NCBI RefSeq assembly: GCF_000337215.1 | Contig: NZ_AOHZ01000018.1 | Span: 400 to 64,399 of the forward strand | DNA: 64,000 nucleotides | Source: Natronolimnohabitans innermongolicus JCM 12255 | GTDB lineage: Archaea > Halobacteriota > Halobacteria > Halobacteriales > Natrialbaceae | Direction of reading: 5' to 3' | Shown: positions 27,753 to 60,256 of the stretch, one piece after another | How positions within the stretch are numbered: position 1 is the stretch's first letter | Layout: every line of letters starts with the position of its first letter | Program-made: the position numbers and the translations under genes | Notes under the pieces: generated by a model | Database searches by the model: none | Seen by the model: the letters and a program-made list of their open reading frames with translations, nothing else | What the model was told of the DNA's origin: nothing

Positions 27753-29390
27753 ATGTCGGAACGAAGTGATCTGTGGCGTTCGGATGGTGGGAACTCTGCT
27801 CGATCGACCGGACGGGATGCCGGTCGATCGAGCGACGACGACGTGTCGTCCGGACGATCTCGGCGAACGGTACTGCACGGAATCGCGGCTGCGGGTGTCG
27901 CTAGCGTCGGTCTGGCGTCCAGCGCTGGCGCCTCGACGAGCGCGTACGAACACTATTACGACGAATACGACCGCGTCGTCGACGTCACCGACGTCGGTGC
28001 CGACGCCACCGGTTCGGAATCGATCTCGCCGATTCTCGAGTCCCAGCGAGCGGACGATACGCTGTTTGTCTTTCCCGAAGGGCGGTACTACATGGATTCG
28101 CAGTTTCGGTTTACGGGCTTTGACAACGTCGGGTTCGTGGGTGACGGGGCGACGCTCGTCCCGGCGGACTACCACGCGTTCGACGGTCCCCAGTACCGGC
28201 TGTTTCGGCTGGGCGTCTCGTACGCCCCGGGTCGACGGCTCCGCTTCGAAGGGTTCGACGTCGATCAGACGGCGCCCGACACCGGGATCAGAGCGATCGA
28301 AGCCTACGCGTCCGAGCGCCTCGAGGTGCGCGATATCACGGTCAGGGGCGAACACGACAGCGGAACCTGGGGTCCCGGACTGTTCAGCGTCACCGACCCG
28401 AACGGGACGGGAATCGTCGAGCGGTTCCGGGCGCCCGACGGCGGCGAGTGGGTCGAGGAGACGCCGAACGACGGCAACCGCTGGCGGGGTCCGATCGGGA
28501 TCGAAGCCAACCAGAACGCGGGCACCCTCGAGTTCAGACGCTGCTGGCTCGGCGGCTTCCCCAACAACGGTCTGTACGCGGCGGGTGGCGACGGCAAGAT
28601 CATCGTCAGCGGTGGCCGCTACCGGAACAGCAACGGGGCGAACGTTCGCGTCGGCGGCGACGACAGCGAAATCCGGTGGCCGACGGTCGAAGTCGACGAG
28701 ACGCACCCGCGAGACCGCACCCAGCGGGGCATCCGAATCGAGAACGGTTCGGGCATCGAGATACACGGCGCGCTCGTCGATATCTCCTCGCCGAAACCGA
28801 CGAGTCACGCGATTTCGGTGATGAACTCGTGCGACGACGCCCGGATCGAAAACGTCGAGATCCGACTGCGCGGCGACGACGTCAACCACGGCATCGTCCT
28901 CTCGCCCGAGTGTGGCGAGACGGCGATCGTCGACACCGAAATTACGCACGAGACTGCGGGCGGTTACCCGCTGTGGCTCCGAGACAGCGCCAAGGCCGAA
29001 CCCGTCGTCGTCGAGCATCTCACCGTCTCCGGCGAGGCGGGCGACGAAAGCGGCTTCCGCGACGGAATCCGGTGTGAGCGCGATAACTGCAGATTTAGCC
29101 ACGTCGACGTTAGTCAGCGCGGTCGCGACGGCACAGACCGGAACGCCATCGTCAACACGGGTTCCAACCTGACCGTCTACCGGAGCGAACTGCGCGCCAG
29201 CCAGTACCCCTTCGTCGACCTCGGTTCCGAGTCGCTCGTTCGCGATTCGGACCTCGAGTCGACGGGCGACAACGAGGCCGTCTGCCTCTACGCGTCCGCG
29301 GCGAACCCGTCCTTCAAGAAGAACCGGCTGGCCGGCGGCATCCGCGACCTCGGCGCCAGCGGCGTCACGAACTGGCAGAACGTCTACTAG
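27753..29390 (+). CDS. Tat-exported beta-helix protein
   Basis: The 545-residue protein has a long polar N-region and a Tat signal (SRRTVLHGIAAAGVASVGLA, about residues 36-56). From residue 78 on (VVDVTDVGADATGSESI) it follows the pattern of pectate-lyase-like right-handed beta-helix proteins, with repeats of 20-25 residues such as IRIENGSGIEIHGALVDIS and DARIENVEIRLRGDDVNHG. No classic polysaccharide-lyase catalytic set could be confirmed. Related proteins bind or cut polysaccharides at the cell surface. It opens a locus of glycan synthesis genes and lies 88 bases before the small frame in front of the flippase gene. Confidence 0.8.
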   Translation: MSERSDLWRSDGGNSARSTGRDAGRSSDDDVSSGRSRRTVLHGIAAAGVASVGLASSAGASTSAYEHYYDEYDRVVDVTDVGADATGSESISPILESQRADDTLFVFPEGRYYMDSQFRFTGFDNVGFVGDGATLVPADYHAFDGPQYRLFRLGVSYAPGRRLRFEGFDVDQTAPDTGIRAIEAYASERLEVRDITVRGEHDSGTWGPGLFSVTDPNGTGIVERFRAPDGGEWVEETPNDGNRWRGPIGIEANQNAGTLEFRRCWLGGFPNNGLYAAGGDGKIIVSGGRYRNSNGANVRVGGDDSEIRWPTVEVDETHPRDRTQRGIRIENGSGIEIHGALVDISSPKPTSHAISVMNSCDDARIENVEIRLRGDDVNHGIVLSPECGETAIVDTEITHETAGGYPLWLRDSAKAEPVVVEHLTVSGEAGDESGFRDGIRCERDNCRFSHVDVSQRGRDGTDRNAIVNTGSNLTVYRSELRASQYPFVDLGSESLVRDSDLESTGDNEAVCLYASAANPSFKKNRLAGGIRDLGASGVTNWQNVY

Positions 29391-29442
29391 GTCGAGCGCT
29401 TCGATATCCCCGATATCCGCCGCTTCGAGCCGTTTAACACCC

Positions 29443-29450
29443 GTATAATA
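29443..29450 (+). promoter_or_regulatory. TATA box before the 26-residue frame and flippase gene
   Basis: GTATAATA ends 27 bases before the GTG at 29478, so the mRNA would begin almost exactly at that GTG. The flippase GTG at 29555 would then be internal, about 80 bases from the 5' end. Confidence 0.55.
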
Positions 29451-29477
29451 ACCTCTCCACGTAGTCAATCGATAGCC

Positions 29478-29558
29478 GTGAGTACGTCGAACGGTGGTCA
29501 GCCGACGGCGAGCGTCGCCCATCGGCTCGAACGGTCCGGGGTGCGGGTGATATCGTGA
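29478..29558 (+). CDS. Possible 26-residue leader peptide overlapping the flippase start
   Basis: The frame runs GTG to TGA and encodes a basic, non-hydrophobic 26-residue peptide (MSTSNGGQPTASVAHRLERS at its start). It begins at the expected transcription start of the GTATAATA promoter, and its TGA overlaps the flippase GTG by two bases (GTGA). This is the arrangement of translational coupling. It is too short to judge by composition, and it may only be the translated leader. Confidence 0.4.
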   Translation: MSTSNGGQPTASVAHRLERSGVRVIS

Positions 29559-31195
29559 ACAGGAGTCTCGCGAGCGGCGTCGCATCGGTCGTTAGCGCGA
29601 AGGTCGTCGTACTCGTCCTCACGATTCTCACGACCCCGTTGCTCTACCGGTTTCTGGGCGCGTCGGGGTACGGCGACTACGCGTTCTTGATGTCCGTGTT
29701 CGCGATCTACATGATCTTCGTCAGTTCCGGCATCACCGACGGCGTCCGGAAGTTTCTCGCCGAGGATCGAAACGCGGCCGACTGGAGCGAGTACGTCGTC
29801 GGCTTCTACTTTCGGCTGGCGATCACGCTCGCCGTCCTCGGCGCGGCCGGACTGGTTCTCGCCGCCCAGTTCGGTCTCGTCGGACTCGCGTTCGGCGAGG
29901 AGTTCGCGATATACTTCTACGCGCTCGCGCTGCTCGTCGTCACGGCCCAGTTTCGCGACTACGCTCGGAAGACGCTCATGGGATTCGGCCTCGAGCGGTA
30001 CTCGGAGCCGTTGAAAATCCTCGACAAGGTCGGCTTCGTCGTGGTCGCGATTCCGGCCGTCTACCTCGGTGCGGGGGTACTCGGCGCGCTCGCGGGGCAC
30101 CTCGTCGCGAGTCTGCTCGTCGCCACCGCCGGGTTGCTTCTCGTCCACCAACGCGTCTCGCTGTCGTCCGTCTTCGATTCGCCTCGCAACGGCGAGCGGT
30201 TCCCCCGACGAGAGATGCTCACGTTCAACTCGCTGAGCATCGTCCTCGTGTTCCTCCTGATGTCGCTCTATCACATCGACATCCTGATGCTCCAGCAGTT
30301 CAGGGACAGTGCGGACGTGGGTAACTACCGGGCGGCCCTTCAACTCGCCGAATTCCTCTGGTTCGTCCCGCTGGCGCTCCAGACCGTCTTCGTCCACTCG
30401 ACCTCGGAGCTGTGGTCCCAGGACCGCCGCCGCGAGATTACCGACCTCGCGTCCCGAACGACGCGGTATACGTTCCTACTGACCGCCGTCATGGCCGTGG
30501 GGCTCGCGGCGCTTGCAGACGTCGCCGTGCCGCTGTACTTCGGTTCCGAGGCGGTTCCGGCGATCGAGCCCCTGCTGTTGTTGCTCCCGGGGGCGCTCGG
30601 GTTCGCGCTCGCCCGGCCGATTCTCGCCGTCTCGCAGGGTGAAGGGACGCTTCGGTACCCGATCGCGGCCACCGGAACCGCGGCAGGGATCAACCTCGTC
30701 CTCAACGCGGTGTTGATCCCGAGCTACGGGATGCACGGCGCCGCGGCCGCAACCAGCGTCGGCTACGGGACGATGTTCGTCTTCCATTGCTGGAGCGCTC
30801 GCCAGGTCGGCTTCGATCCGCTGGCCGACGCGCGACTCGGTCGGTCGCTGCTGGCGACCGTCCTCGCGGCCGGTCCGATCGTCGCCCTCGCGTCGGCGAT
30901 TTCGAACCCGTGGCTCGCGCTCGCGGTCGTTCCGCCGTTCGGACTCGTCGTCTTCGTCGGGTTCGCGCTGCTGGTCGGCGCCCTGAACCCGGCCGAACCG
31001 TTCGAGGTTCTGTCAGCCTTTCCCGATCCCGTCGGCTCGCACGCGAGCGCGATCCGACGGCGACTCGAGAACGTCGGCATCAGTTCGTCGCGAAGCTGGT
31101 TCCAGAACCTGCTGTTCGTCACCGGTCTCTCGCTGCTGGTCTCCGGGCTCGCGCTCGGACTGCTCGAGCCCGGACTCCGGATACTCCTTCCCTGA
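29555..31195 (+). CDS. Wzx-type polysaccharide flippase
   Basis: The 546-residue protein has about 14 hydrophobic segments. It belongs to the MOP/MATE superfamily of oligosaccharide flippases: it starts VSAKVVVLVLTILTTPLLYR and RFLGASGYGDYAFLMS and has FNSLSIVLVFLLMSLYHIDILM in the middle. Such proteins move lipid-linked oligosaccharide across the membrane. The start is GTG, overlapping the stop of a small upstream frame. It is the only flippase in the window and fits a Wzx/Wzy-like or N-glycan assembly route. Confidence 0.9.
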   Translation: MNRSLASGVASVVSAKVVVLVLTILTTPLLYRFLGASGYGDYAFLMSVFAIYMIFVSSGITDGVRKFLAEDRNAADWSEYVVGFYFRLAITLAVLGAAGLVLAAQFGLVGLAFGEEFAIYFYALALLVVTAQFRDYARKTLMGFGLERYSEPLKILDKVGFVVVAIPAVYLGAGVLGALAGHLVASLLVATAGLLLVHQRVSLSSVFDSPRNGERFPRREMLTFNSLSIVLVFLLMSLYHIDILMLQQFRDSADVGNYRAALQLAEFLWFVPLALQTVFVHSTSELWSQDRRREITDLASRTTRYTFLLTAVMAVGLAALADVAVPLYFGSEAVPAIEPLLLLLPGALGFALARPILAVSQGEGTLRYPIAATGTAAGINLVLNAVLIPSYGMHGAAAATSVGYGTMFVFHCWSARQVGFDPLADARLGRSLLATVLAAGPIVALASAISNPWLALAVVPPFGLVVFVGFALLVGALNPAEPFEVLSAFPDPVGSHASAIRRRLENVGISSSRSWFQNLLFVTGLSLLVSGLALGLLEPGLRILLP

Positions 31196-31502: not shown

Positions 31503-32573
31503 TCAGTACACCTGCTGCTCCAGGTGTTCGCTCTCGGCCATGTCGAACACCATCGCGAACAGCAAGAACGCGACGCCGGCGAGCACCAACAGCAGACTCG
31601 AGGCGCCGCCGACGATAGCGGGGACGAGACTCGAGAACGCCGCGCCGAGCAGCAGCGTCAGGCCGAGCACGCCGACCCCGGCGGCCGCCGCGCCGACGAG
31701 GTAAAACAGCGCGAGTGGGTGGAAGTCGAGCACGAGGTACTTCGTCTTGAGGCGCCACAGGAAGTTGCGAAGCAGCATCGTCGACACCTTCGGGACGTAC
31801 TGCGAGTAGGTGATGCTCGACTCCTCGTCGCCGTAGACGGCCGGCATGGCCACGTCGGCGACGCGCATCCCCTGGACGTTCAGCTTCACGAGCAGGTCGT
31901 TACAGTAGCCGTAGTACTCGTAGAGCCCCTCGAGGTCGACGGCCTCGAGCGCGTCGCCCGAGATAGCCGTGTAGCCGTTCTGGGGGTCCATCGTCTTCCA
32001 GTAGCCCGAGGCGATCTTCGTCAGGAACGTCAGGATGGCGTTGCCCACGAACCGAAATCGAGGCATCGCCGCGCGGTACTCGCGCGAGAGGAGCCGGTTT
32101 CCCTTGGCGTAGTCGGCGTCGCCCTCGGCGATCGGGTCGAGCAACCGCGGCATCTGAGACAGGTCCATCTGCCCGTCGGCGTCGACGGTAACCGTCGCGT
32201 CGACGCCGTCTTCGCGCGCGGCGAGGTAGCCGGTTTTGATCGCGCCGCCGGCGCCGAGGTTTTCGTGGTGTTGGATCGGGACGACCCGGCCGATCGGATC
32301 GCGGACCGTCGCTCGGGCGGACAGCGCCGACGCGCCGCCGTCGGTCAGCAGCGGCGTTTCGTCGGCCGCGTCGCGGTCCGAATCGACGTCGGCGCCGGCG
32401 CCGGCGTCTTCGCGCGCCGCCTCGAGGATCTCCCGCCAGGTTCCGTCGGTCGACCGGTCGTCGATCGCGTAGATCCGGTCGACGTAGTCGGGCATCTCGC
32501 GGATCACGTCGCCGACGAACCCCTCCTCGTCGTAGGCCGGCATCACGACGCCGACGGTCTGCCCCCGATACAT
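31503..32573 (-). CDS. GT2 glycosyltransferase with C-terminal membrane anchor
   Basis: The 356-residue protein starts with the GT-A fold: VGVVMPAYDEEGFVGDVI, YAIDDRSTDGTWRE, NLGAGGAIKTGYLAARE and TVDADGQMDL (the DxD site near residue 129). DPQNGYTAIS near residue 190 is typical of dolichol-phosphate-sugar synthases. Two hydrophobic helices (about 290-312 and 322-345) anchor the C-terminus. A loop of about 35 residues rich in Asp and Ala (residues 53-88) is inserted after the first strand pair. The start overlaps the stop of the deacetylase-like gene by one base, so the two are co-transcribed. Confidence 0.9.
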   Translation of the reverse strand: MYRGQTVGVVMPAYDEEGFVGDVIREMPDYVDRIYAIDDRSTDGTWREILEAAREDAGAGADVDSDRDAADETPLLTDGGASALSARATVRDPIGRVVPIQHHENLGAGGAIKTGYLAAREDGVDATVTVDADGQMDLSQMPRLLDPIAEGDADYAKGNRLLSREYRAAMPRFRFVGNAILTFLTKIASGYWKTMDPQNGYTAISGDALEAVDLEGLYEYYGYCNDLLVKLNVQGMRVADVAMPAVYGDEESSITYSQYVPKVSTMLLRNFLWRLKTKYLVLDFHPLALFYLVGAAAAGVGVLGLTLLLGAAFSSLVPAIVGGASSLLLVLAGVAFLLFAMVFDMAESEHLEQQVY

Positions 32574-33841
32574 CAGTCGCGTTCCCCCGTCGACTCCAGC
32601 AGATCACTCGGCGTGACGACGTCGACGTCGGCGTCGTCGATGTGTTCGAGGAGGTCCTCGAACGCCCGCTCCGAGAGGCCGTCGCCACCGATCTCCTCGA
32701 AGTGCAAGACCGCAAGCTGGCCGTGTTCGGCGGCGTAGTCGACGTACCGCTTCGTCGTCTCGCCGGCCCCACCGGAGAAGAAGCCGACGTTGTGGGGGTC
32801 CGTCAGCGGTTTCCCGTTCGGCCCGCCGCCGAAGCGAAACGCCGTGTCGTGGTACTCCCGGACCAGATCGATCGTCTCCGGCCCGAGCACGTTTCGCGGC
32901 GTGACGAAGTGGCGCGCGCCGTCTTCGAAACCGCGACTCTCGAGGAACGACTGGGTTCGCCTGATCGCCCCCTCCTGTTCCTCGGGCGAGAGTTCGTGCA
33001 TGAACTGCGCGCCGGTCCGCGGCCGTGCAGCCATCTCCCAGCCCGCGTTCGAGAGCGCCCCGAGGTCGGCGACCGAGAGCCGTCCGGGGTCGCCGAGCGC
33101 CTCGTAGAGCACCGCTTCGACGCCGGGGAAGCCGTACTCTTCGGTGTGCTCGAGGGCCGTCTCGTAGTGGCTCTCGAGGGCGCCGTCGAACAGCAGCATT
33201 ACGGAGCCATCGTCGGGCTGGTCGATCGCCCGGAGGTCGTCGATTCGGCAGTCGATCTCACCGTCAGAATCGCCGCGACGGCGGGCCGCCAGGCGAATCT
33301 CGCGGACGTTCTCGAGATTCGGCTGCCCGTCGACGCCGGTGATGCCGAAGTCGACGCGGACCCAGCGGTCGGTCGGACCGGTGAGCGTCCGCTCCAGTCG
33401 GTGGGCGTTCCCCGAACCCGGGGCGAACAACTCGAGCGTGAGGTGTAGCTGCTCGCGGTCGCTGAAGGAGACCGCAAGCGAGAGCGTCTTTTCGGACAGG
33501 TCGGTTCCACCGGGGAACGTCCGGTAGATCGCGGCGCGGTCGGTGCCTTCGTCGGCGAACAGCCGCGCCGACTGCGAACCCGCGTAGGGATCGTCGGTGT
33601 CGGCCTCGAGACGGCCGGCGTCGATCATCGACGTCCACTCGAGGGTCTCGAAGTCGTCGATCGACTCGCCCGGAAGCGTTGGCCCGTCTGTACCGCCATT
33701 GTCGCCGTCGCCGCCCTGGTCCGTCTGGGTCGACGACTCGTCGTCATCGTCCCCGCGGATACTCGAGAGGCAGCCGGCGAGGCCGATCGTTCCGGCGGTG
33801 GCAACGGTCGTCACGAACGTTCGTCGGTTCCTGTGCGTCAT
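32573..33841 (-). CDS. Secreted polysaccharide-deacetylase-like lipoprotein, probably inactive
   Basis: The 422-residue protein has a signal with NRRTFVTTVATAGTIGLAGC, the lipobox cysteine being Cys24, then an acidic linker. A beta-rich carbohydrate-binding-like region (60-205) is followed by a NodB-like barrel (210-420). In the barrel the first motif reads LLFDGA (217-221) where active enzymes have FDDG, and the metal-binding H-x3-H motif is replaced by AARPRTGAQ. It therefore seems to have lost catalysis, unlike its paralog at 37845-39179, with which it shares domain order and the ending HIDDADVDVVT. It heads an operon with the GT2 gene. Confidence 0.82.
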   Translation of the reverse strand: MTHRNRRTFVTTVATAGTIGLAGCLSSIRGDDDDESSTQTDQGGDGDNGGTDGPTLPGESIDDFETLEWTSMIDAGRLEADTDDPYAGSQSARLFADEGTDRAAIYRTFPGGTDLSEKTLSLAVSFSDREQLHLTLELFAPGSGNAHRLERTLTGPTDRWVRVDFGITGVDGQPNLENVREIRLAARRRGDSDGEIDCRIDDLRAIDQPDDGSVMLLFDGALESHYETALEHTEEYGFPGVEAVLYEALGDPGRLSVADLGALSNAGWEMAARPRTGAQFMHELSPEEQEGAIRRTQSFLESRGFEDGARHFVTPRNVLGPETIDLVREYHDTAFRFGGGPNGKPLTDPHNVGFFSGGAGETTKRYVDYAAEHGQLAVLHFEEIGGDGLSERAFEDLLEHIDDADVDVVTPSDLLESTGERD

Positions 33842-33971: not shown

Positions 33972-34961
33972 ATGCCCAGAGTCAGCGTCGTTATTCCGAC
34001 ATACAACAGAGCCGAGACGCTTCCCCGCGCGATCGACAGCGCGCTCGAACAGACGATGGACGACCTCGAGGTGGTCGTCGTCGACGACGGTTCGAGCGAC
34101 GAGACGCAGTCGGTGCTCGCGGACTACGACGATCCGCGAGTTCGACCGATCGTCCACGCGACGAATCAGGGGGCGAACGTCGCCCGAAACACCGGTATCG
34201 AGTACGCCCGCGGCGAGTACATCGCGTTCCTCGACTCCGACGATACGTGGCAGCCGACGAAGCTCGAACGACAACTCGAGGCCCTCGAGGGCCGTTCGGA
34301 CGACTGGGTCGGCGTCTACTGTGAGACGAGCTACGACCTGTCTGGCACAGACGGGCACGTTCGCGGCGCCGCCGCGTCCGTGCTCGCGCGGGCCGACGAG
34401 GAACCGACGATGGAAGGCGGCGACGAGTTAATCGGCGAGATCCTCGCCGACAACGTCCAGCCCGATGCTGGCTCAACGCTGCTCGTCCGCACCGAAGTCG
34501 CCCGCGAGGTCGACGGCTTCGACGAAGAACTCGATCGGTTCCAGGATCCCGAGTTCTGCCTCCGGGTACTCGAGGCGGGCAAACTCGCGTACGTCGACGA
34601 GTCGCTGGTCGTCCGCGAGGAGACGGGCCAGCCACCGGCGGACGTCATCAAAGCGGCCAGCGACCAGTATCTGGCGTCCTACGCCGACGCAGTCGAGCGG
34701 TTCGAAGCGGAGGGGTACGAGATCCGGGCCACGCACCGACTGCTCGTCGCGAAGGCGTATCTCTCCGAGGGACGGCTCCTCCGCGGACTCTGGTACCTGC
34801 GCGGCGCCGCGGTGCCGGCGCGGACCGTTCCCGGGCTCGGCTGGGCCGCCGGCACCGGCGTTCGACGACGGCCGCTCCCGATCGTCGGAACGATACTGGT
34901 CGCGTTCGTCGTGACGCTTCTGTATCTGGCGACGCCCGTCCGACGCGTGCTGACCGAGTAG
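33972..34961 (+). CDS. GT2 glycosyltransferase
   Basis: The 329-residue protein begins VSVVIPTYNRAETLPRAID. It has VVVDDGSSDETQ and the metal-binding FLDSDDTWQPTKLERQ segment near residue 85, all typical of GT2 family enzymes that add sugars from nucleotide donors. A hydrophobic segment near the C-terminus (about 300-320) may anchor it. GGGAGGA lies just before the ATG. It is divergent from the deacetylase-like gene across 130 bases, where GATAATAATGG (33937 region) is a possible TATA element. Confidence 0.9.
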   Translation: MPRVSVVIPTYNRAETLPRAIDSALEQTMDDLEVVVVDDGSSDETQSVLADYDDPRVRPIVHATNQGANVARNTGIEYARGEYIAFLDSDDTWQPTKLERQLEALEGRSDDWVGVYCETSYDLSGTDGHVRGAAASVLARADEEPTMEGGDELIGEILADNVQPDAGSTLLVRTEVAREVDGFDEELDRFQDPEFCLRVLEAGKLAYVDESLVVREETGQPPADVIKAASDQYLASYADAVERFEAEGYEIRATHRLLVAKAYLSEGRLLRGLWYLRGAAVPARTVPGLGWAAGTGVRRRPLPIVGTILVAFVVTLLYLATPVRRVLTE

Positions 34962-36404: not shown

Positions 36405-37640
36405 ATGCAGCGGAAATCGCTTTCACGACGATCCGTACTGTCAGTAGCAGGCGGCTTTGCATTGACGAGCGCTGGCATGGTCGCGGTTGGCGGCGCACAG
36501 GATGGTAACAACGGGGACGACGGTGGGAATACGCGCGAGTCGTTCACGATCCGGGACGGAACGGCGGAGGAGACGACGGTCCACGTCACTACGGCGGAGG
36601 CGGACGGCCCGACGGCCGTCGTCCTCGGTGGGGTCCACGGGAACGAGGTCGCCGGCTACGTGGCGGCCAACGCAATCGTCGACTGGCAAATCGACGCCGG
36701 AACGCTCGTCACGATTCCCGAGGCGAGCGCCATCGCGGTCGACCGCGGGACGCGAACGGACGACGACGGAATCGATCTGAACCGACAGTTCCCCGAAGGG
36801 GAGACGCCGGAAACCCAGCTCGCACGGGAGATCTGGGCGGTCGTCGCCGACTACGACGCCGACGTCGTGATCGACCTCCACGAGTCGACCGGGCTGTACG
36901 CCGGCGACCCCGTCGACGGCGTCGGGCAGGCGATCTTCCGCTCCGACGGGGGCTGGGCCGTCGCCGCGGCGAACGACGCTGCCGAGTACACCACGCGAAA
37001 CTACGTCGACGACCCCGAACTCGCGTTCCAGACCGGATCGTTCTCCGGACCCGACTCCGATCCGATGGGGCTGCTCGTCCACAAGGCGGCCCGCGATCTG
37101 GGTTCCGACGCGTTCCTCGTCGAGACGATCTCGACGGACGTCGACCTCGAGACGCGAGTTCAGTGGCACTCGGCGATCGTCGAGCGGCTGCTGACCAACG
37201 AGTTGCTGCTCGATGAACCCGCCAACGGTCACGGACCTGACGAGGACGAGTCCGCCGATGAGGATGACACCGACGATACCGACGACGGCGACGAATCTGA
37301 CGCAGCGGACGATACCGAGGACGATGCCGACGACGCTGACGACGATGATTCGGCGGCCGCCGACTCGCCGGTCCCAGTCATCGAGACCTGTCCCGAAAAC
37401 GTCGACGAACTGGCACTCGAGTCCGGGCAGACGGTCGAACTCGACGCGTCGGGATCGCACGCACCGGACAGCGAGATCGTTACCCACGAGTGGGATGTCG
37501 GCCAGACAGAACAGTTCGATAAATCCGGCGAGACGCTCGAGGTGACGGTCGGGTCGAACGGCCGCGATACGGTCGTGTTGCGCGTCGTCGACGATGACGG
37601 CGCCACCGCGACGGAGTCGATAACCCTGTCGACGAAGTAA
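36405..37640 (+). CDS. Tat-exported AstE/AspA-like zinc hydrolase with PKD domain
   Basis: The 411-residue protein has a Tat signal (LSRRSVLSVAGGFALTSAG). The hydrolase domain (about 45-270) has GGVHGNEVAGY (zinc His and Glu), DLNRQFPEG, VVIDLHEST (third ligand) and AFLVETIS (catalytic Glu), the full set of the succinylglutamate-desuccinylase/aspartoacylase branch of M14. These enzymes split amide bonds between an acyl group and an amino acid. An Asp-rich linker (about 275-315) leads to a C-terminal PKD domain (DASGSHAPDSEIVTHEWDVG). Export, PKD domain and context suggest it acts on an amide-bearing surface glycan or peptide. The start at 36405 sets up the signal correctly. Confidence 0.85.
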   Translation: MQRKSLSRRSVLSVAGGFALTSAGMVAVGGAQDGNNGDDGGNTRESFTIRDGTAEETTVHVTTAEADGPTAVVLGGVHGNEVAGYVAANAIVDWQIDAGTLVTIPEASAIAVDRGTRTDDDGIDLNRQFPEGETPETQLAREIWAVVADYDADVVIDLHESTGLYAGDPVDGVGQAIFRSDGGWAVAAANDAAEYTTRNYVDDPELAFQTGSFSGPDSDPMGLLVHKAARDLGSDAFLVETISTDVDLETRVQWHSAIVERLLTNELLLDEPANGHGPDEDESADEDDTDDTDDGDESDAADDTEDDADDADDDDSAAADSPVPVIETCPENVDELALESGQTVELDASGSHAPDSEIVTHEWDVGQTEQFDKSGETLEVTVGSNGRDTVVLRVVDDDGATATESITLSTK

Positions 37641-37844: not shown

Positions 37845-39179
37845 TCAGTAGTGTTGTTCCGTGCGCAGTTCCCAGAGCCGGTCGAACGTGATGACCTCGA
37901 CGTCGGCATCGTCGATGTGCTCGAGCAGTTCCTCGTAATCGTCCTCGGGCATCGTGTTGTCCTCTTCGAAGGTGTGGAAGTTCAGGATCGTACACTGGTT
38001 GTGCTCCGCGGCGAGGTCGACACAGCGCTTCGAGATGTCGAGGTCGTGGCCGATCGTTCGCGGCAGCGCCAGCGGGTCGAAGCCGTAGACGTTCGTCAGG
38101 TTGACGTCACCGGCCTGGTTGAAGCCGCCGCAGTAGTGGAAGTCGGTCTTGTGCTCGAGGCTGGTCTTATCGTAGCTGTTGTGCGGGTAGACGATGTAAT
38201 CCGCGCCCTCGAAGCCGTTGGTGATGAACCACTGTTTGTCGGTCTCGAGGCGCCTCCGGATCTCCTCTTCGTCGTCGTATTCGTGGATCGGATCGTGGGT
38301 CCCGTGGACGACGATCTGATCGCCTTCTTCCTGGCGTTCCTGCAGTTCGGAAACCGACATGATGTCGTCGCCGCCGCGCTCGGTCCACTGCGGAACTGGC
38401 GCCTGGACCGTCCGGAAGCCGAACTCGTCGTGCAGCGGCGAGGCGGTGTCGTAGTAGTCGCTGAAGCCGTCGTCCCAGACGAGCATAACGTAGCCCTGAT
38501 CGGGCGTCTCGTGGGTCCGCAGGTCGTCGATCCAGACCTCGGCCTCGTCCATGGTGTGAAGCACCTGAATCTCGATGTAGTCGAGCGCGTCGAGCGTCGG
38601 TTCGTACGAACTCTCCTCGTAGACGCCCGGACTCGAGCGGAACCATCCGACGTCGGGTTCGCGGTACCTGATTTCGCGCAGCGAGTACACCTTTGCACTG
38701 CCGAACTGGTCAACGAGCCGCAGGTTGATCGTGATGTTCTGGGGCGTCGTCGTCCGGATCGCAAACGAGAAGTCAGTATCCGTGAAGTCCTCGCTGCTGA
38801 GCGAGCGGCGCGCGACGATGTTTTCCTCGCCGTCCGACTCCAGGTGGAGGCTCTGGTCGCCGTCGAACACGACGTCGGTGTCGGCTTCGCCGTTACCCTG
38901 AATCAGCTCCCAGTCGTCGAGGTCGCTGAAGTCGTCGAACGACTCCCCGGGCTGGCGGTACTGCTCGCGACTATCGTACTCGGTCTCGAGCGAAGGCACG
39001 CCGTCCGCGAGTGCGGCAGCCTGGCCCGACGACTCGTCGTCCGTTCCGTTCCCGTTCTCGTCGTCGTCGCTGGAGCCGACGACCGAATCGAGACGGTCAG
39101 CACAGCCGGCGAGGCCAGCGAGCGCAGTCGCGCTCGACAGTGCGAGAACTCGGCGTCGGGTTGGTCGCTGTTGTGACAT
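37845..39179 (-). CDS. Secreted polysaccharide deacetylase lipoprotein
   Basis: The 444-residue protein has a signal with TRRRVLALSSATALAGLAGC (lipobox Cys26) and an acidic linker. A beta-rich sugar-binding-like region (75-225) precedes a NodB barrel. Here the motifs are intact: VMLVWDDGFSDYYD (235-244), VVHGTHDPIH with His292, His295 and His299, and VYPHNSYDKTS. It probably removes acetyl groups from a surface polysaccharide. It is a paralog of the protein at 32573-33841 and uses its own promoter: CCTATAATAA on the minus strand (39211-39220) lies 31 bases upstream. The ATG at 39179 precedes the signal; the longer frame is spurious. Confidence 0.88.
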   Translation of the reverse strand: MSQQRPTRRRVLALSSATALAGLAGCADRLDSVVGSSDDDENGNGTDDESSGQAAALADGVPSLETEYDSREQYRQPGESFDDFSDLDDWELIQGNGEADTDVVFDGDQSLHLESDGEENIVARRSLSSEDFTDTDFSFAIRTTTPQNITINLRLVDQFGSAKVYSLREIRYREPDVGWFRSSPGVYEESSYEPTLDALDYIEIQVLHTMDEAEVWIDDLRTHETPDQGYVMLVWDDGFSDYYDTASPLHDEFGFRTVQAPVPQWTERGGDDIMSVSELQERQEEGDQIVVHGTHDPIHEYDDEEEIRRRLETDKQWFITNGFEGADYIVYPHNSYDKTSLEHKTDFHYCGGFNQAGDVNLTNVYGFDPLALPRTIGHDLDISKRCVDLAAEHNQCTILNFHTFEEDNTMPEDDYEELLEHIDDADVEVITFDRLWELRTEQHY

Positions 39180-39210
39180 TGGCGGGCCGATGATAGCGAC
39201 AGTTGGCCCA

Positions 39211-41253: not shown

Positions 41254-41748
41254 ATGCGTCTGACGCCGTTTTGGTTGTACGCGACGTCGGCAGGCTCCGC
41301 CGGCGATAGCTCCAGTGACGTCGGTTCAGGTGTCACGATCTATCGCTCACCATCAACACAGTTCTCGAACGATAGTTCTGCCGAGGACCACCTCCCGGAC
41401 ACCGACGAGGAACTGCTCGCCGTACTCGACGAGATGGAGACGCCCGTAACTGTCGACAAGATCGTCGATCGGTTGACTTACCCTGAGCAGCCGCCCGTAG
41501 AGACGTGGGCGACGGTTCACGAACGCCTCTATCAGACTCGACTGCCGTCGCTCGAAGCGGCGGGTCACATCGAGTTCGATCAGGAACAGGGGCTCGTCGA
41601 ACGTTCGACGGTACAGGCGGACGCTGCCAGCCGTCGCTCGTCGAGTGGAGTCGGTATCGTCTCATTGGGTCTCAAACTCGCGGTCGTCGTGTGTTTTCTC
41701 GTGGCTGCGGCGACCACTGCAGCTGTCGCGGGTTTGATTCCCGTCTAA
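41254..41748 (+). CDS. Membrane-anchored winged-helix regulator (DUF7344-like)
   Basis: The 164-residue protein has a winged-helix domain (about 48-120) with TDEELLAVLDEMETPVTVDKI, YQTRLPSLEAAGHIEFDQEQG cut around LPSLEAAGHIEFD, resembling DUF7344. A single hydrophobic helix (about 135-160) ends the protein, so the DNA-binding part faces the cytoplasm. It converges with a second regulator of the same kind at 41785-42369, only 36 bases away. Both lie inside the glycan locus and may control it. Confidence 0.78.
   Translation: MRLTPFWLYATSAGSAGDSSSDVGSGVTIYRSPSTQFSNDSSAEDHLPDTDEELLAVLDEMETPVTVDKIVDRLTYPEQPPVETWATVHERLYQTRLPSLEAAGHIEFDQEQGLVERSTVQADAASRRSSSGVGIVSLGLKLAVVVCFLVAAATTAAVAGLIPV

Positions 41749-49198: not shown

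Positions 49199-49202
<4 letters not shown>
48087..49202 (-). CDS. DUF354 protein (UDP-GlcNAc 2-epimerase fold)
   Basis: The 371-residue protein belongs to DUF354: VIVTIQHPGHVHFFREPIE, ARENDVAIDLLEAYDIEHEV cut around the start, VVRLGSWEASHDVGHAGFDD near 195 and ADVVLSEGATTAAEAAVLGTP near 280. The fold is the GT-B type shared with UDP-GlcNAc 2-epimerase (WecB) and glycosyltransferases. Its place directly after a nucleotide-sugar dehydrogenase is the place WecB often holds, which suggests a part in making or using a UDP-hexosamine or its uronate. Activity is unproven. It overlaps both neighbours by four bases. Confidence 0.85.
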
Positions 49203-50596
<1,394 letters not shown>

Positions 50597-50947: not shown

Positions 50948-51643
50948 ATGGTGCCACCTCAGATCGGAAGCTACGTCCCGTTCGCGGCGATTTACAGCAG
51001 CGCGCCTATCGATGCGATCCCGGCGTCGGCTCACCGGCTCGCCACACACACGTTCGTTTCGGCCCCACCCGTTCCAACGTCCGCAACGAACACTGGTGGG
51101 CCCGCGGTGGGATCCTCGCTGCTCCGGCTTACGTCGCCCGCCGAGGTGGTCCTAATTGCGGTTCTGTTCTTGCTGGTATGCGGTCTCGTCGCCCTTCGAG
51201 TTGCAGACGCACTGTCGGAACGAGACGTCGAGTTGTCCCGCACACTTCGATCGGCGACGAACGCGAAACCGAGCGCATCGGCGGCTGCAACCACCGAGTC
51301 GTCGACGGCGTCGACGGAGCGAGAGCCAACTAGCTCACCCACCGACGATCACCAGTCGTTCGAACATTACATCGCTCCCGAAACGCCGTCCGAACTCTTA
51401 AGCGACGAAGGGGAGGTCGTCCGACTCCTCGTCGCCAACCACGGTCGACTCCGGCAACACCGAATCGCCGACGAGACCGGATGGTCGAAGTCGAAGGTCA
51501 GTCGCATCTGTTCGCGGATGGACGCCGACGACACGATCGAGAAGTCGTCGGTCGGCCGCGAGAACGTTATCACACTGTCCGACCGGTCGGCCGACGACGC
51601 GACGCAGTCGGACGACGTCGAGAACCCGGACCCGGTTCCGTAA
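50948..51643 (+). CDS. Membrane-anchored MarR/IclR-like HTH regulator
   Basis: The 231-residue protein begins with about 60 residues rich in Ala, Pro and Thr, presumably outside. A transmembrane helix follows (about 65-85, SPAEVVLIAVLFLLVCGLVA). A Ser/Thr-rich linker (90-140) leads to a winged-helix domain (150-205) with EGEVVRLLVANHGRLRQHRI, DETGWSKSKVSRICSRM and VGRENVITL. This layout is common in haloarchaeal membrane-bound regulators. It is divergent from the nucleotide-sugar dehydrogenase operon and is a candidate to control it. Confidence 0.82.
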   Translation: MVPPQIGSYVPFAAIYSSAPIDAIPASAHRLATHTFVSAPPVPTSATNTGGPAVGSSLLRLTSPAEVVLIAVLFLLVCGLVALRVADALSERDVELSRTLRSATNAKPSASAAATTESSTASTEREPTSSPTDDHQSFEHYIAPETPSELLSDEGEVVRLLVANHGRLRQHRIADETGWSKSKVSRICSRMDADDTIEKSSVGRENVITLSDRSADDATQSDDVENPDPVP

Positions 51644-55455: not shown

Positions 55456-56430
55456 CTACTCTTCCTCGAGGACGAGCGTGACCGATTCGTCGTCGCCGTC
55501 GATTTCGACGTCGGTCTCGTCGCTCTCGTAGTCGTCGGCCTCCGCGGAGACCGCGTACTCGCCGTCCTCGAGTTCGAACTCGACCTCGCCGTCGTCGTCG
55601 GTGTCTCGCTCTTCGCTCGAGCCGAAGAGAACGGCGTCGTCCTCGACGGTGACGGTGGCGTCCTCGATCGCGTCGCCGTCGTCGTCCTCGACGGTCACGT
55701 CCAGGTCGTGGGTTTCGTCGTCGCTGTCGTCGCTGTCGTCGTCATCATCGTCATCGTCGTCCGCTTCGAGGACGAGCGTGACCGTTTCGTCGTCGCCGTC
55801 GATTTCGACGTCGGTCTCGTCGCTCTCGTAGTCGTCGGCCTCGGCGGAGACCTCGTACTCGCCGTCCTCGAGGTCGAACTCGACCTCGCCGTCGTCGGCG
55901 TCACGGTCGTCTTCGGATCCGCTTTCGGGGTCGACGAAGACGGTGGCGTCGTCGACCGAATCGCCGTCGTCGTCCTCGACGAAGACCGTCAGGGTGTGGG
56001 TTTCGTCCTCGTCGTCTTCGTCGTCCGCGTCGTCGGAGTCGTCGCTGTCGTCGTCACCGTTTTCGTCGCTGTCACCGTCGTCGGCATCCGAATCGTCCCC
56101 GTCATCGTCAGTTTCGTCGCTATCGCCGTCATCGGTGTCATCGCCGCTGTCATCACCGCCGTCGTCGGCGTCGTCGTCCGCATCGGCGTCGTCTCCGTCG
56201 CCCTCGTCATCGTCGGCATCGTCGCTCGCGGGGTCTTCCTCGTCGTCCGTGTCGTCCGTGACGGAGCCGACCATCCCGGTGATGGAGGCGCCGCTGGCCG
56301 CGAATACCAGCCCGATTACCAGGAAGACGACCCCGCTGACGGTAAGCAGGATCTGTACGTGTTTCTGAAGCGCTCGCGTCTCCGTACTCGGCTCTCGGAC
56401 GTTTCGGCTCATTGTATTCTCCTCTTGCAT
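55456..56430 (-). CDS. Membrane-anchored Asp-rich protein with two PEGA/CarboxypepD-like repeats
   Basis: The 324-residue protein has one N-terminal membrane helix (about 25-45, VQILLTVSGVVFLVIGLVFA). A very acidic linker made almost only of Asp, Ser, Gly and Glu follows (about 58-150). Two beta-sandwich repeats end the protein (about 150-222 and 240-324), each with the pattern GEVEFDLEDGEYEVSAEADDY and VTLVLE. They resemble carboxypeptidase-regulatory-like modules of surface proteins. The two repeats share a 102-base stretch with 99 identical positions, so duplication was recent or kept by gene conversion. A second ATG (56412, MSRN) is an alternative start. Confidence 0.8.
   Translation of the reverse strand: MQEENTMSRNVREPSTETRALQKHVQILLTVSGVVFLVIGLVFAASGASITGMVGSVTDDTDDEEDPASDDADDDEGDGDDADADDDADDGGDDSGDDTDDGDSDETDDDGDDSDADDGDSDENGDDDSDDSDDADDEDDEDETHTLTVFVEDDDGDSVDDATVFVDPESGSEDDRDADDGEVEFDLEDGEYEVSAEADDYESDETDVEIDGDDETVTLVLEADDDDDDDDDSDDSDDETHDLDVTVEDDDGDAIEDATVTVEDDAVLFGSSEERDTDDDGEVEFELEDGEYAVSAEADDYESDETDVEIDGDDESVTLVLEEE
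55471..55572 (-). repeat. 102-base direct repeat, copy A, in the Asp-rich protein gene
   Basis: It matches 55771-55872 at 99 of 102 positions. The copies start exactly 300 bases (100 codons) apart, so both are read in the same frame. Confidence 0.95.
55771..55872 (-). repeat. 102-base direct repeat, copy B, in the Asp-rich protein gene
   Basis: It is the partner of the copy at 55471-55572, with three base differences. It codes for the upstream of the two PEGA-like modules. Confidence 0.95.
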
Positions 56431-56777: not shown

Positions 56778-57767
56778 CTACTCGACTGTCTGTAGTTCGC
56801 CCGCGTCCGCGACTCGTGAACGGGAGTCGACGACGGTATCGCGAACGGTGCGAATGTGATCGACGACTGACGGTCCGACCACGGCGAAACAACAGAGCGC
56901 GAGACTCGCGACCGACGGGTCGTGGCGCGTGGCTTGTAGCCCGTATCGAAGTGCGCGGCGCCTGTTGTTCTGGTCGAGTTCCGTCCAGGCGGAGTTGATC
57001 TGCCGACCGTGCCGGAATCGGCGTTCGATCCCGGGATTGCTGGTAATATCGTCGCGATACTTCGACCAGATGCGACCGCAGACGTCGGTGGCCTCATCGA
57101 GGTCGCGGTGCAGTTGTTCGCGCTGTTCGACCGCGGCCAGTTCGGAGACGTTCCTGTCGTGGTACTGGCGAACCACCAGCGGCTCGTCGACGTACTCGTA
57201 CTCGTACTCCCGGGCGACTCGGATCGTCAAATCCCAGTCTTCGCCGCAGTCGAACTCGGTGTCGTAGCCGCCGACGGTCTCGAAGCACTCGGCTCGGTAC
57301 ATGTGTCCGGAGTAGGGCTTGCAGTCGAATCCGGCGAGGATCTCCGGGTAGATATCGCCGCGAAGCGACGGCGTGTACGTGTCGACGGTTCGACCGCCTC
57401 TCTTGGCGACACCACCGGTATAGACGACTCCACACGCCGGGTTGTCCGCCATCACCGCGAGTTGTTTCTCGACTTTCGTCGGCGCCCAGCGGTCGTCGTC
57501 GTCGAGGATGCAGACGAACTCTCCGCGGGCGTACTCGAGCGCGCGATTTCGACTCCCCGAGATGCCGCGTCGTTCGTCGTTATACAACGGCCGAACGCGG
57601 TCGTCGTCGGCGTAGGACTCGAGGACGCGTCTGGTGTCGTCGCTCGGCGGGTCACAGACGATGACGACCTCGATTTCGTCGTGAGTCTGTCCCAGCGCCG
57701 TTTCGACCGCCCCTTCGATGTACTCGGGCCGGTCGTATGTCGGAACGAGTACACTGACGAGCGTCAT
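56778..57767 (-). CDS. GT2 glycosyltransferase
   Basis: The 329-residue protein has the GT-A core VSVLVPTYDRPEYIEGAVE, VVIVCDPPSDDTRRVLESY and GEFVCILDDDDRWAPTKVEKQ (metal-binding DDDD near residue 90), plus CGEDWDLTIRVAREYEY near 175. The C-terminus (about 290-310) has one weak hydrophobic stretch. It transfers a sugar from a nucleotide donor with inversion. It is divergent from the GT2 gene at 58098. Confidence 0.9.
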   Translation of the reverse strand: MTLVSVLVPTYDRPEYIEGAVETALGQTHDEIEVVIVCDPPSDDTRRVLESYADDDRVRPLYNDERRGISGSRNRALEYARGEFVCILDDDDRWAPTKVEKQLAVMADNPACGVVYTGGVAKRGGRTVDTYTPSLRGDIYPEILAGFDCKPYSGHMYRAECFETVGGYDTEFDCGEDWDLTIRVAREYEYEYVDEPLVVRQYHDRNVSELAAVEQREQLHRDLDEATDVCGRIWSKYRDDITSNPGIERRFRHGRQINSAWTELDQNNRRRALRYGLQATRHDPSVASLALCCFAVVGPSVVDHIRTVRDTVVDSRSRVADAGELQTVE

Positions 57768-59060: not shown

Positions 59061-59084
59061 TACGGTTTACTGTCCGTCAGGTCC

Positions 59085-59116
59085 GGCGCACCCGCCGCCC
59101 GGGCGGCGGGTGCGCC
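59085..59116. terminator. 32-base perfect GC palindrome
   Basis: GGCGCACCCGCCGCCC is followed at once by its exact reverse complement GGGCGGCGGGTGCGCC, giving 16 pairs with no loop. It lies between the convergent GT2 gene (stop 59060) and FkbM gene (stop 59231). It has no T-run, so it may act as a bidirectional structural terminator, or be a mobile palindrome of another kind. Confidence 0.5.
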
Positions 59117-59230
59117 GGGACATCGGTACAGCAATCCGTATGAGTCGGAGACGACGTCGTCTCGTCGTCCCCTCGTGACCGTCTCGCCGATCGACTGTCG
59201 GTGTGGATACGACGGCCGGCGGCGGTCGAA

Positions 59231-60256
59231 CTACGTTTTCCGAACGATGCACTCGATCGAGTGATCGCTCGCTGCCATCGCTTGCTCGAGGTCGCCAAGG
59301 GTTTCGACGCCGCAGTCGAGGCCGTGCCAGCGGCGGGCGTCGTCGACGCCGGCGGCGGCGTCGGTTCGGACGGCCGAGGCGACCTCGAACCCGGTCTCCG
59401 CAAAGCGGGAGACGATCGCTCGTTGCGTCTCGGCGTCTAAATCGAGCGGATGCAACTCGAGGAAGACGACGGTCGGGCCGGGCGCCTCGAGGACGGTCGA
59501 GAGTCCATCGAGCACCTCGGACTCGTACCCCTCGACGTCGAATCGGACGGCGTTGATCGACGCGGGATCGAGCCCGCGACGCTCGAGATAACGGTCGCCG
59601 GTCGTCTGATCGACGCTGATCGTCCGCGTCTCGTCGCCGTCGGCGTCCGTCGTCGCCTCCCGAACGCGGTGCTGGTTCGAGTGCGTGCTCAGCGCCACCT
59701 CGACCGTTCGATCCGCGGCGCCGAACGCCAGCCGATCGACGGTCGCTCGGTCGGCGACCCCGTTTCGCTCGAGGTTTTCCTCGAGTACGTCGACGTTCGA
59801 GGGAATCGGTTCGACCGCGTGGATCCGCGCTCGGTCGCCGAGAACGCCGTCGGCGACGGTACAGAAGTAGCCGATGTTCGCGCCGACCTCGAGCAGTCGA
59901 ACGGGTCCGTCGACGGTTTCGGCGAGCCACTCGAGTTCGCGCTCGTAGGCGACCGTCGAGCGGTGCTCGTGGACGCCGTAGGCGAGCAGCGTCCGCGAGA
60001 TGCCGGCGTCTTCGGCGTCGACGACCAGTTCGTGTTCGCCGACGACGACGGTCTGATAACGCTCGTCCCCCAGTCGGTACGCGTAGTAGGGGTTCCGTCC
60101 GGTCGCCAGTTCGGCGACCGAGCCGAGCGCCGCGCCGGGTCGGCCCGCTCGCAGGAGGGTGGCGAGTTTCCGTCCCTCGAGTCGGGCGTACCGGGCCACG
60201 AGTGATTCGGTCGACGCGATCGACCGGAATCGACTCACGGGCGTTCGCGTACTCAT
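59231..60256 (-). CDS. FkbM family methyltransferase
   Basis: The 341-residue protein has the SAM-binding loop VRLLEVGANIGYFCTVA (about 118-134), HAVEPIPSNVDVLEENLERN, and FDVEGYESEVLDGLS near 235 with the FkbM signature D-x-E-G-x-E. FkbM enzymes methylate hydroxyl groups of sugars or polyketides, and are common in surface-glycan loci. Its position at the end of the glycan locus suggests O-methylation of a glycan. The first 85 residues are a variable N-terminal domain. Confidence 0.88.
   Translation of the reverse strand: MSTRTPVSRFRSIASTESLVARYARLEGRKLATLLRAGRPGAALGSVAELATGRNPYYAYRLGDERYQTVVVGEHELVVDAEDAGISRTLLAYGVHEHRSTVAYERELEWLAETVDGPVRLLEVGANIGYFCTVADGVLGDRARIHAVEPIPSNVDVLEENLERNGVADRATVDRLAFGAADRTVEVALSTHSNQHRVREATTDADGDETRTISVDQTTGDRYLERRGLDPASINAVRFDVEGYESEVLDGLSTVLEAPGPTVVFLELHPLDLDAETQRAIVSRFAETGFEVASAVRTDAAAGVDDARRWHGLDCGVETLGDLEQAMAASDHSIECIVRKT

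What the first reader, a model, noticed from the sequence alone, without database searches (positions are those of the whole stretch)
27753..60256. Surface-glycan locus with a possible carboxyl amidation or aminoacylation system
Within one locus lie a WecC/WbpO-type UDP-sugar dehydrogenase (makes uronic acids), a DUF354 epimerase-fold protein, GlmS, an asparagine-synthase-like protein without glutaminase, an ATP-grasp carboxylate ligase-type protein of the sugar-transfer group, and an exported AstE/AspA-like hydrolase that cuts acyl-amino acid bonds. Together they suggest that uronic acid carboxyls are joined to ammonia or amino acids, and that the amide can be removed outside the cell. Bacterial O-antigens have amidated uronates made with AsnB-like enzymes. 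An archaeal version with both a ligase set and an exported amidase has, to my knowledge, not been described.
Basis: inference. Interest (0 to 1): 0.62.

Follow-up and report, generated by a model that had tools for sequence, protein, structure and literature searches.

The report
Haloarchaeal glycan locus with amide-bond genes
A salt-loving archaeon carries a conserved gene island for a surface sugar chain that always includes an odd asparagine-synthetase relative and often an exported amide-cutting enzyme, which suggests, without proving it, that acidic sugars in the chain are capped or joined through amide bonds.

Summary
The genes are really there. The region is the core of a surface-glycan island found in about half of sampled Natrialbaceae; the window belongs to Natronolimnohabitans. 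The three genes are not one obligate set.

(1) The AsnB-like protein is the constant member. In 61 relatives it occurs in exactly the 21 genomes that have the island's oligosaccharyltransferase-fold GT-C protein at 43% identity or more. It has the two-domain AsnB fold and ATP-binding residues. It lacks the glutaminase Cys, and E348 and K449 of E. coli AsnB have no aligned equivalent.

(2) An intact, TAT-exported M14 AstE/AspA-type hydrolase lies beside AsnB in 30 of 42 loci. All 38 genomes with it also have AsnB.

(3) The intact ATPgrasp_ST ligase is beside AsnB in 15 of 42; all three occur in 13.

Five Haloferax loci carry AsnB, a related M14 and an unrelated PylC-like ATP-grasp beside UDP-HexNAc pathway genes, so the combination arose more than once.

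Amide chemistry on a hexosaminuronate glycan is the best explanation but is unproven. Against it: missing AsnB catalytic residues and a neutral published exopolysaccharide for H. gibbonsii ATCC 33959. I found no report of this gene combination in archaea in the open-access papers searched.

The parts
26780..27436 (+). HTH_10 (bacterio-opsin activator-type) regulator at the upstream edge of the island
   Evidence: Pfam PF04967 64 bits; present at the same place in most syntenic loci
27753..29390 (+). TAT-exported right-handed beta-helix (pectate-lyase-like) protein
   Evidence: PF13229 26.2 vs 25.9 bits; RRTVLHG TAT signal; conserved
29555..31195 (+). Wzx-type polysaccharide flippase
   Evidence: PF01943 50.6 bits
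31503..32573 (-). GT2 with C-terminal membrane helices and DADGQ motif; distant AglJ/AepG-like dolichol-phosphate glycosyltransferase
   Evidence: PF00535; TIGR04182 66 bits, below cut-off; DADGQ motif in sequence
32573..33841 (-). NodB-like TAT lipoprotein 1; NodB metal-site residues not conserved relative to lipoprotein 2, probably inactive paralogue
   Evidence: sequence, alignment with lipoprotein 2
33972..34961 (+). GT2 glycosyltransferase
   Evidence: PF00535 136 bits
35085..36245 (+). ATPgrasp_ST: ATP-grasp carboxylate-amine ligase of the sugar-transfer group, catalytic residues intact
   Evidence: PF14397 107 bits; motifs conserved in 19 aligned homologues
36405..37640 (+). TAT-exported M14 AstE/AspA-like metallo-hydrolase with acidic linker and PKD domain; zinc and catalytic residues intact
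   Evidence: PF24827 37.8, PF18911 32.4 bits; HGNE, LNRQF, DLHES, VET conserved
37845..39179 (-). NodB-like TAT lipoprotein 2 (PgaB-like polysaccharide deacetylase fold), divergent from AsnB
   Evidence: PF01522 30.4 bits; WDDG and HGTH motifs
39409..41109 (+). AsnB-like protein: class-B asparagine synthetase fold, Cys nucleophile lost, PP-loop SAGFDS kept
   Evidence: PF00733 29.3 bits; profile-profile 99.5% probability to AsnB; Foldseek to TsnB9/CarA/AsnB
41254..41748 (+). DUF7344 protein a (putative regulator)
   Evidence: PF24035 33 bits
41785..42369 (-). DUF7344 protein b
   Evidence: PF24035 101 bits
42698..43738 (+). DUF1616 membrane protein
   Evidence: PF07760 278 bits
43738..44145 (+). 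YdjM-family membrane protein
   Evidence: PF04307 44 bits
45147..47141 (-). GT-C membrane protein with oligosaccharyltransferase (AglB-like) fold
   Evidence: AlphaFold pLDDT 80.8; Foldseek best hits AglB 3waj/7e9s, E 6e-7
47131..48090 (-). GT4 glycosyltransferase
   Evidence: PF00534 46 bits
48087..49202 (-). DUF354 GT-B protein, MurG-like, probable glycosyltransferase
   Evidence: PF04007 44 bits; weak MurG hits
49199..50596 (-). UDP-sugar 6-dehydrogenase of the UDP-HexNAc type (start could be upstream, to 50779)
   Evidence: TIGR03026 401 bits, TviB 361 bits; 4r16 and Cap5O best PDB matches
50948..51643 (+). DUF7343 membrane-anchored winged-helix regulator
   Evidence: PF24034 91 bits
52335..54146 (+). 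GlmS, glucosamine-6-phosphate synthase, with intact MCGI glutaminase start
   Evidence: SIS 171 bits, GATase_6 75 bits; sequence
55456..56430 (-). highly acidic membrane-anchored protein with two repeated beta-rich modules
   Evidence: sequence and conservation in syntenic loci
56778..57767 (-). GT2 glycosyltransferase, variable end of island
   Evidence: PF00535 109 bits
58098..59060 (+). GT2 glycosyltransferase, variable end of island
   Evidence: PF00535 99 bits
59231..60256 (-). FkbM-family methyltransferase, variable end of island
   Evidence: PF05050 56 bits

Best explanation
The region is a haloarchaeal surface-glycan island. Shown from sequence: it encodes nucleotide-sugar supply (GlmS and a UDP-HexNAc-type 6-dehydrogenase, probably giving a UDP-hexosaminuronate), a dolichol-phosphate-type GT2, several GTs, a Wzx flippase, an oligosaccharyltransferase-fold GT-C protein, and exported tailoring proteins (NodB-like lipoproteins, beta-helix, M14). 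Inferred: in the cytoplasm the AsnB-like protein activates a carboxyl group of the hexosaminuronate (on nucleotide sugar or lipid-linked glycan) with ATP and forms an amide with ammonia or another amine supplied directly, because its own glutaminase is dead. In strains that have it, the ATP-grasp ligase adds an amino acid through a second amide bond. After flipping and transfer by the GT-C protein, the exported M14 enzyme hydrolyses some of these amides at the surface, tuning charge. AsnB is the core step; M14 and ATP-grasp are variable tailoring steps.
For: Catalytic residues of the ATP-grasp and M14 are conserved, and the M14 has a TAT signal. AsnB-like keeps the PP-loop SxGxDS and the second Mg Asp and the whole two-domain fold. 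In 61 relatives AsnB occurs in exactly the 21 genomes with the GT-C protein at 43% identity or more, including one where the two lie about 195 kb apart. In 294 genomes, 38 of 38 M14 genomes have AsnB, against 84 of 294 overall. M14 paralogues outside the locus occur in 13 of 19 AsnB+ and 0 of 18 AsnB- family members (tested). ATP-grasp and AsnB lie adjacent but divergently arranged in two other lineages, one of them not a glycan locus. Five Haloferax loci carry a PylC/ATPgrasp_Ter ATP-grasp, AsnB and M14 with GlmS, GlmM, GlmU-like and a UDP-sugar dehydrogenase. Precedent: AsnB-family WbpS makes the uronamide in P. gingivalis (PMC7468200); amino acids are amide-linked to GalA in a Vibrio EPS (PMC4663550).
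Against: In the AsnB-like family, E348 and K449 of E. coli AsnB align to Leu and Pro (low-confidence part of the alignment), and it scores far below AsnB and WbpS equivalog cut-offs. ATPgrasp_ST is absent from most loci (27 of 42), and presence of M14 is not tied to ATP-grasp among them (Fisher p 0.16). AsnB copies exist outside glycan loci, e.g. next to DHDPS-family genes in one genus. The published EPS of Haloferax gibbonsii ATCC 33959, which has the combination, is neutral, without uronic acid (table in PMC3191746). Phyletic counts are not corrected for phylogeny; linkage on one island explains part of them. No chemistry is available.
Confidence: 0.45

Rival explanations
1. The amide bonds are on amino sugars, not on uronate carboxyls. 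NodB-like lipoproteins (or a cytoplasmic step) free an amino group, the ATP-grasp joins the carboxyl of an amino acid to it (as in N-glycyl-glucosamine or N-seryl sugars), and the M14 acts as an exported N-deacylase of the AspA/DoeB kind.
For: M14 best PDB and NCBIfam relatives include N-acetyl-diaminobutyrate deacetylase DoeB and aspartoacylase. NodB-like lipoproteins flank the trio and lipoprotein 2 keeps WDDG and HGTH motifs. Halococcus has N-glycyl-glucosaminyl bridges (PMC4187196). P. gingivalis linking sugar carries both an N-seryl group and a uronamide (PMC7468200).
Against: NodB-like lipoproteins are extracytoplasmic while the ATP-grasp is cytoplasmic, so the order of steps is awkward. 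It leaves the constant AsnB and the UDP-HexNAc-type dehydrogenase without a linked role.
Confidence: 0.22
2. The AsnB-like protein has lost amide synthesis and serves another role (other adenylate chemistry, or a structural or regulatory partner of the glycan machinery). M14 is an ordinary exported peptidase, and the glycan has no amide modification.
For: Missing Cys, E348 and K449 equivalents; scores far below AsnB equivalog cut-offs; uneven co-occurrence of the ATP-grasp; neutral EPS in H. gibbonsii.
Against: PP-loop and Mg Asp are invariant, so ATP use is likely kept. Beta-lactam and carbapenam synthetases, also without the Cys, still make amides (family knowledge). Haloferax loci pair it with a different ATP-grasp.
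Confidence: 0.22
3. The locus makes or decorates a peptide-containing wall polymer such as the Natronococcus glutaminylglycan, with the ATP-grasp as amino-acid ligase and M14 as gamma-glutamyl hydrolase.
For: Natronococcus species have the syntenic locus and a glycosylated polyglutamine wall is reported for the genus (PMC4243693).
Against: The locus is spread over many Natrialbaceae genera and Haloferax, not known for such walls. The Natronococcus loci seen lack the ATP-grasp in the island. No polyglutamate synthase was recognised among window genes.
Confidence: 0.07

Closest known systems
WbpS / WbqG / eps_aminotran_1 (TIGR03108) uronamide amidotransferases of O-antigens and the P. gingivalis A-LPS linking sugar
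   Same: AsnB-superfamily protein encoded beside Wzx, glycosyltransferase and UDP-HexNAc dehydrogenase genes; in the bacterial exosortase loci also beside a polysaccharide deacetylase (PMC7468200)
   Different: The archaeal protein lacks the glutaminase Cys and scores 20.7 bits against a cut-off of 816.9; the locus also has an OST-fold GT-C and an exported M14
Beta-lactam synthetase and carbapenam synthetase (BLS, CarA)
   Same: AsnB fold with dead glutaminase domain and PP-loop; among best structural matches
   Different: Those retain the catalytic Lys and a Tyr/Glu dyad and cyclise small molecules (family knowledge); no equivalent Lys was seen in the alignment here
ATPgrasp_ST (PF14397), predicted cell-surface polysaccharide ATP-grasp amidoligases
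   Same: Full Pfam match with intact motifs, in a polysaccharide locus
   Different: No member with a tested substrate was found in the papers searched; here it is an accessory to an AsnB-containing archaeal locus
M14 AstE/AspA family (aspartoacylase, DoeB deacetylase; Csd4/M99)
   Same: Zinc and catalytic motifs intact
   Different: TAT-exported with PKD domain and acidic linker; restricted to AsnB-bearing genomes in the class sample at E 1e-50
Haloarchaeal AepG/HAH_1206 acidic EPS pathway (Haloarcula hispanica)
   Same: DolP-type GT2 with DADxQ motif in a cluster with an OST homologue (PMC9943897)
   Different: No AsnB, ATP-grasp or M14 mentioned in the passages read; glucuronic acid rather than predicted HexNAcA

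Membership tests
Class-B asparagine synthetase (AsnB, TIGR01536) | Score above equivalog cut-off | tested here: not met
   50.8 bits against 267.1
Class-B asparagine synthetase (AsnB) | N-terminal catalytic Cys of the glutaminase domain | tested here: not met
   ELFGVFG replaces MCGI; absent in all 22 members
AsnB superfamily | PP-loop SxGxDS and second Mg-binding Asp | tested here: met
   S229, G231, D233, S234, D322
AsnB superfamily synthetase chemistry | K449 and E348 equivalents (E. coli numbering) | tested here: inconclusive
   Aligned to Pro472 and Leu319, but the alignment is weak there
WbpS / eps_aminotran_1 (TIGR03108) | Score above cut-off | tested here: not met
   20.7 bits against 816.9
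ATPgrasp_ST (PF14397) | Gathering score and ATP/Mg residues | tested here: met
   107 bits against 31.4; KxxxGGGG, GWDV, ExN conserved
M14 AstE/AspA (PF24827) | Gathering score and HxxE, NR, H, catalytic E | tested here: met
   37.8 bits against 25; motifs conserved
M14 AstE/AspA | Cleaves acyl-amino acid or amide bonds of the glycan | not testable with these tools
   needs biochemistry
Nucleotide sugar dehydrogenase (TIGR03026) | Score above cut-off | tested here: met
   401 bits against 189.8
UDP-HexNAc 6-dehydrogenase (TviB, archaeal UDP-ManNAc DH) | Score above equivalog cut-off | tested here: not met
   361 against 592 and 257 against 750; still higher than UDP-glucose DH AglM (196)
Oligosaccharyltransferase-type GT-C (AglB/STT3) | GT-C fold match | tested here: met
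   AlphaFold pLDDT 80.8, Foldseek best hit 3waj E 6e-7
Oligosaccharyltransferase (AglB/STT3) | WWDYG-type acceptor motif and transfer to protein | not tested
   no sequence family match; could be polymerase, ligase or OST

The most novel reading that the evidence does not exclude
A Halobacteria-wide glycan system in which a Cys-less AsnB homologue, using ammonia or a free amine with new catalytic residues, makes hexosaminuronamide units as a required step for an OST-like GT-C transferase, with two unrelated ATP-grasp ligases independently recruited to add amino acids and an exported M14 enzyme that edits the amides on the cell surface.
Probability: 0.22. Interest if true: 0.75.

Novelty: new variant of a known kind. 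Interest (0 to 1): 0.5.

Why it matters
If right, it would give archaea a genetically tractable counterpart (Haloferax gibbonsii and relatives) of bacterial uronate amidation and aminoacylation, name the enzymes, and add surface editing by an exported hydrolase. It would also explain a family of Cys-less AsnB homologues that is strictly co-inherited with one glycan transferase, and it bears on how highly acidic haloarchaeal surfaces tune charge, cation binding and virus attachment.

Tried and rejected
phmmer of the AsnB-like protein against PDB found nothing; a profile was needed. Pfam PF18471, guessed first as a locator query, was the wrong family; it served only to place the window. The GT2 DolP-like protein had no PDB sequence match. 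Haladaptatus ATP-grasp plus AsnB neighbourhoods looked at first like further glycan loci, but they hold DHDPS, mandelate-racemase, amidase and M20 genes, so I did not count them as support for glycan amidation. The idea that loci without ATPgrasp_ST hide another ATP-grasp within 10 kb was checked with a profile and found no candidate; a more distant ATP-grasp family could be missed. The 2009 amidoligase survey (PMC3268129) is not held, so its statements were not used as evidence. The glutaminylglycan reading was considered and rated low.
Full report
WHAT IS THERE. From 26.8 to 54.1 kb the order is: HTH_10 regulator, TAT beta-helix protein, Wzx flippase, DolP-type GT2, NodB-like TAT lipoprotein 1, GT2, ATPgrasp_ST, TAT M14 with PKD domain, NodB-like TAT lipoprotein 2, AsnB-like, two DUF7344, DUF1616, YdjM, a 664-aa membrane protein, GT4, DUF354, UDP-sugar dehydrogenase, DUF7343, GlmS. 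From 55 to 60 kb there is a highly acidic membrane-anchored protein, two more GT2s and an FkbM methyltransferase; this end is variable between genomes.

ORIGIN. A genome of the same genus (G001) has a 144,870-base contig identical in length to NZ_JAVDDV010000009.1 of Natronolimnohabitans sp. A-GB9, with the same AsnB position, so the window is inferred to be from Natronolimnohabitans, Natrialbaceae.

SYNTENY. Loci fetched from relatives and 71 named loci show one island in many Natrialbaceae genera (Natrinema, Natronorubrum, Natrialba, Natronococcus, Haloterrigena, Halobiforma, Natronosalvus and others). AsnB with NodB lipoprotein 2, the DUF7344 pair, DUF1616, the membrane protein, GT4, DUF354 and the dehydrogenase is nearly invariant. 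ATP-grasp and M14 lie between GT2 and NodB lipoprotein 2 and may be present or absent.

CO-OCCURRENCE COUNTS. In 294 genomes of the class (summarised) AsnB-like is in 84, M14 (E up to 1e-50) in 38, ATP-grasp (E up to 1e-25) in 50. All 38 M14 genomes and 36 of 50 ATP-grasp genomes have AsnB. In 42 family loci, M14 lies within 12 kb of AsnB in 30, ATP-grasp in 15, both in 13. M14 and ATP-grasp are not significantly associated with each other within those loci (p 0.16). In the 37 sampled genomes of the same family (p-values), 17 of 19 AsnB+ and 0 of 18 AsnB- have M14; 13 of 19 and 0 of 18 have ATP-grasp; counting only M14 copies outside the locus, I get 13 of 19 and 0 of 18. These p-values ignore phylogeny, but presence and absence also vary within single genera (g8, g9 and g10 each contain AsnB+ M14+ and AsnB- M14- species).

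CORE PARTNER. The 664-aa membrane protein was modelled with 28 homologues (pLDDT 80.8). Its best structural matches are the archaeal oligosaccharyltransferase AglB and other GT-C transferases (E 6e-7). In 61 relatives, homologues of at least 43% identity occur in exactly the 21 genomes with AsnB and in none of the other 40, including a genome where the two lie about 195 kb apart (G015). More distant homologues (38% or less) occur in four AsnB-negative genomes. AsnB therefore looks like a required part of this particular transferase system.

ASNB-LIKE PROTEIN. Conservation starts at M25 of the longest ORF (39409) with M(N/K)xELFGVFG across 22 sequences. Profile comparison with canonical AsnB gives 99.5% probability over the whole length, and the predicted model (pLDDT 64.7, moderate) matches TsnB9, CarA, AsnB and BLS. 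So the N-terminal Ntn-type domain is retained but the Cys is gone. PP-loop S229-G231-D233-S234 and D322 (AsnB D238 and D351) are kept. E348 and K449 align to L319 and P472 (one search checks the numbering); that stretch of the alignment is weak, so loss of these residues is likely but not certain. The protein can probably bind and cleave ATP; whether it makes an amide is open.

ATP-GRASP AND M14. Both retain their catalytic residues across homologues. The M14 carries a TAT signal, a zinc site HGNE...H, the R and E residues, an acidic linker and a PKD domain; its nearest solved relatives are N-acyl-diaminobutyrate deacetylase-like and aspartoacylase proteins. One family member's ATP-grasp match holds an in-frame TGA (G026) and one locus keeps only a fragment (L133), so the gene is dispensable.

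SUGAR. The dehydrogenase scores 361 bits to TviB and 257 to archaeal UDP-ManNAc dehydrogenase but 196 to UDP-glucose dehydrogenase AglM; its best PDB match is annotated as UDP-ManNAcA dehydrogenase. None reaches an equivalog cut-off, so substrate remains inferred. Loci in other families add a GlmU-like nucleotidyltransferase (13 loci), a GlmM-like phosphomutase (8), GlmS (20) and a WecB-like epimerase (3; by sequence appearance), which favours UDP-HexNAc as precursor. Haloferax EPS with GlcNAcA and GlcA2,3NAc are known (table in PMC3191746).

INDEPENDENT RECRUITMENT. In Haloferax gibbonsii ATCC 33959 (L191) the order is dehydrogenase, DUF354, an ATP-grasp of the PylC/ATPgrasp_Ter kind (PF21360, PF15632), GT-C, a DUF7537 protein, a Thioredoxin_4 protein, GlmS, AsnB, GlmU-like, M14, GlmM-like. 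The ATP-grasp and ATPgrasp_ST do not find each other in tblastn, and the Haloferax M14 carries an N-terminal extension that looks thioredoxin-like (fold not tested). The set recurs in H. massiliensis, H. elongans, H. larsenii and H. prahovense; in H. massiliensis the M14 match is split in two pieces. That two unrelated ATP-grasps sit beside AsnB and M14 in glycan loci is the best sequence argument for a shared amide chemistry. Against it, the published EPS of exactly this H. gibbonsii strain is neutral, so the product would have to be another glycan.

KNOWN PARALLELS. Bacterial WbpS (AsnB superfamily, eps_aminotran_1) amidates HexNAcA in O-antigens and in the P. gingivalis linking sugar, which also bears an N-seryl group (PMC7468200). 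Amino acids amide-linked to GalA occur in a Vibrio EPS (PMC4663550). ATP-grasp amino-acyl ligases beside a peptidase-like protein in bacterial polysaccharide loci were noted for CA_C2195 (PMC4000134). In archaea, Halococcus has N-glycyl-glucosaminyl bridges (PMC4187196) and Natronococcus a glycosylated polyglutamine wall (PMC4243693). I found no paper on this gene combination in archaea in ten open-access searches; subscription literature was not searched.

VERDICT.

Noticed in passing
window 55456-56430 (-): Gene for a 324-aa membrane-anchored protein with about 46% Asp+Glu and two repeated beta-rich modules; conserved near GlmS in several relatives although the window between 54.2 and 56.8 kb looks gene-poor.
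   Followed up: partly
window 32573-33841 (-): Second NodB-like TAT lipoprotein whose aligned NodB motifs are changed relative to lipoprotein 2; probably a non-catalytic paralogue.
   Followed up: partly
L191 13176-14543 (-): Haloferax M14 carries a long N-terminal extension that looks thioredoxin/DsbA-like, and a separate Thioredoxin_4 protein is encoded upstream of GlmS in many loci.
   Followed up: no
L232, L228, L231, L225: AsnB-like copies outside glycan loci: beside DHDPS-family, mandelate-racemase, acetamidase and M20 genes in one genus, and adjacent to a divergent ATP-grasp with amidohydrolase and peptide-transport genes in another (L225); possibly a separate peptide or amide metabolism.
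   Followed up: partly
L006 and L133: Decaying ATPgrasp_ST genes: in-frame TGA in one Natrialbaceae genome and only a fragment left in Halobiforma haloterrestris.
   Followed up: no
window 62204-63706 (-): Low-complexity acidic open frame with tandem 18-base repeats at the edge of the window; start uncertain.
   Followed up: no
window 42698-43738 (+): DUF1616 protein in the island; a DUF1616 protein (HVO_2173) is an experimentally observed N-glycoprotein in Haloferax volcanii (PMC8241124).
   Followed up: no
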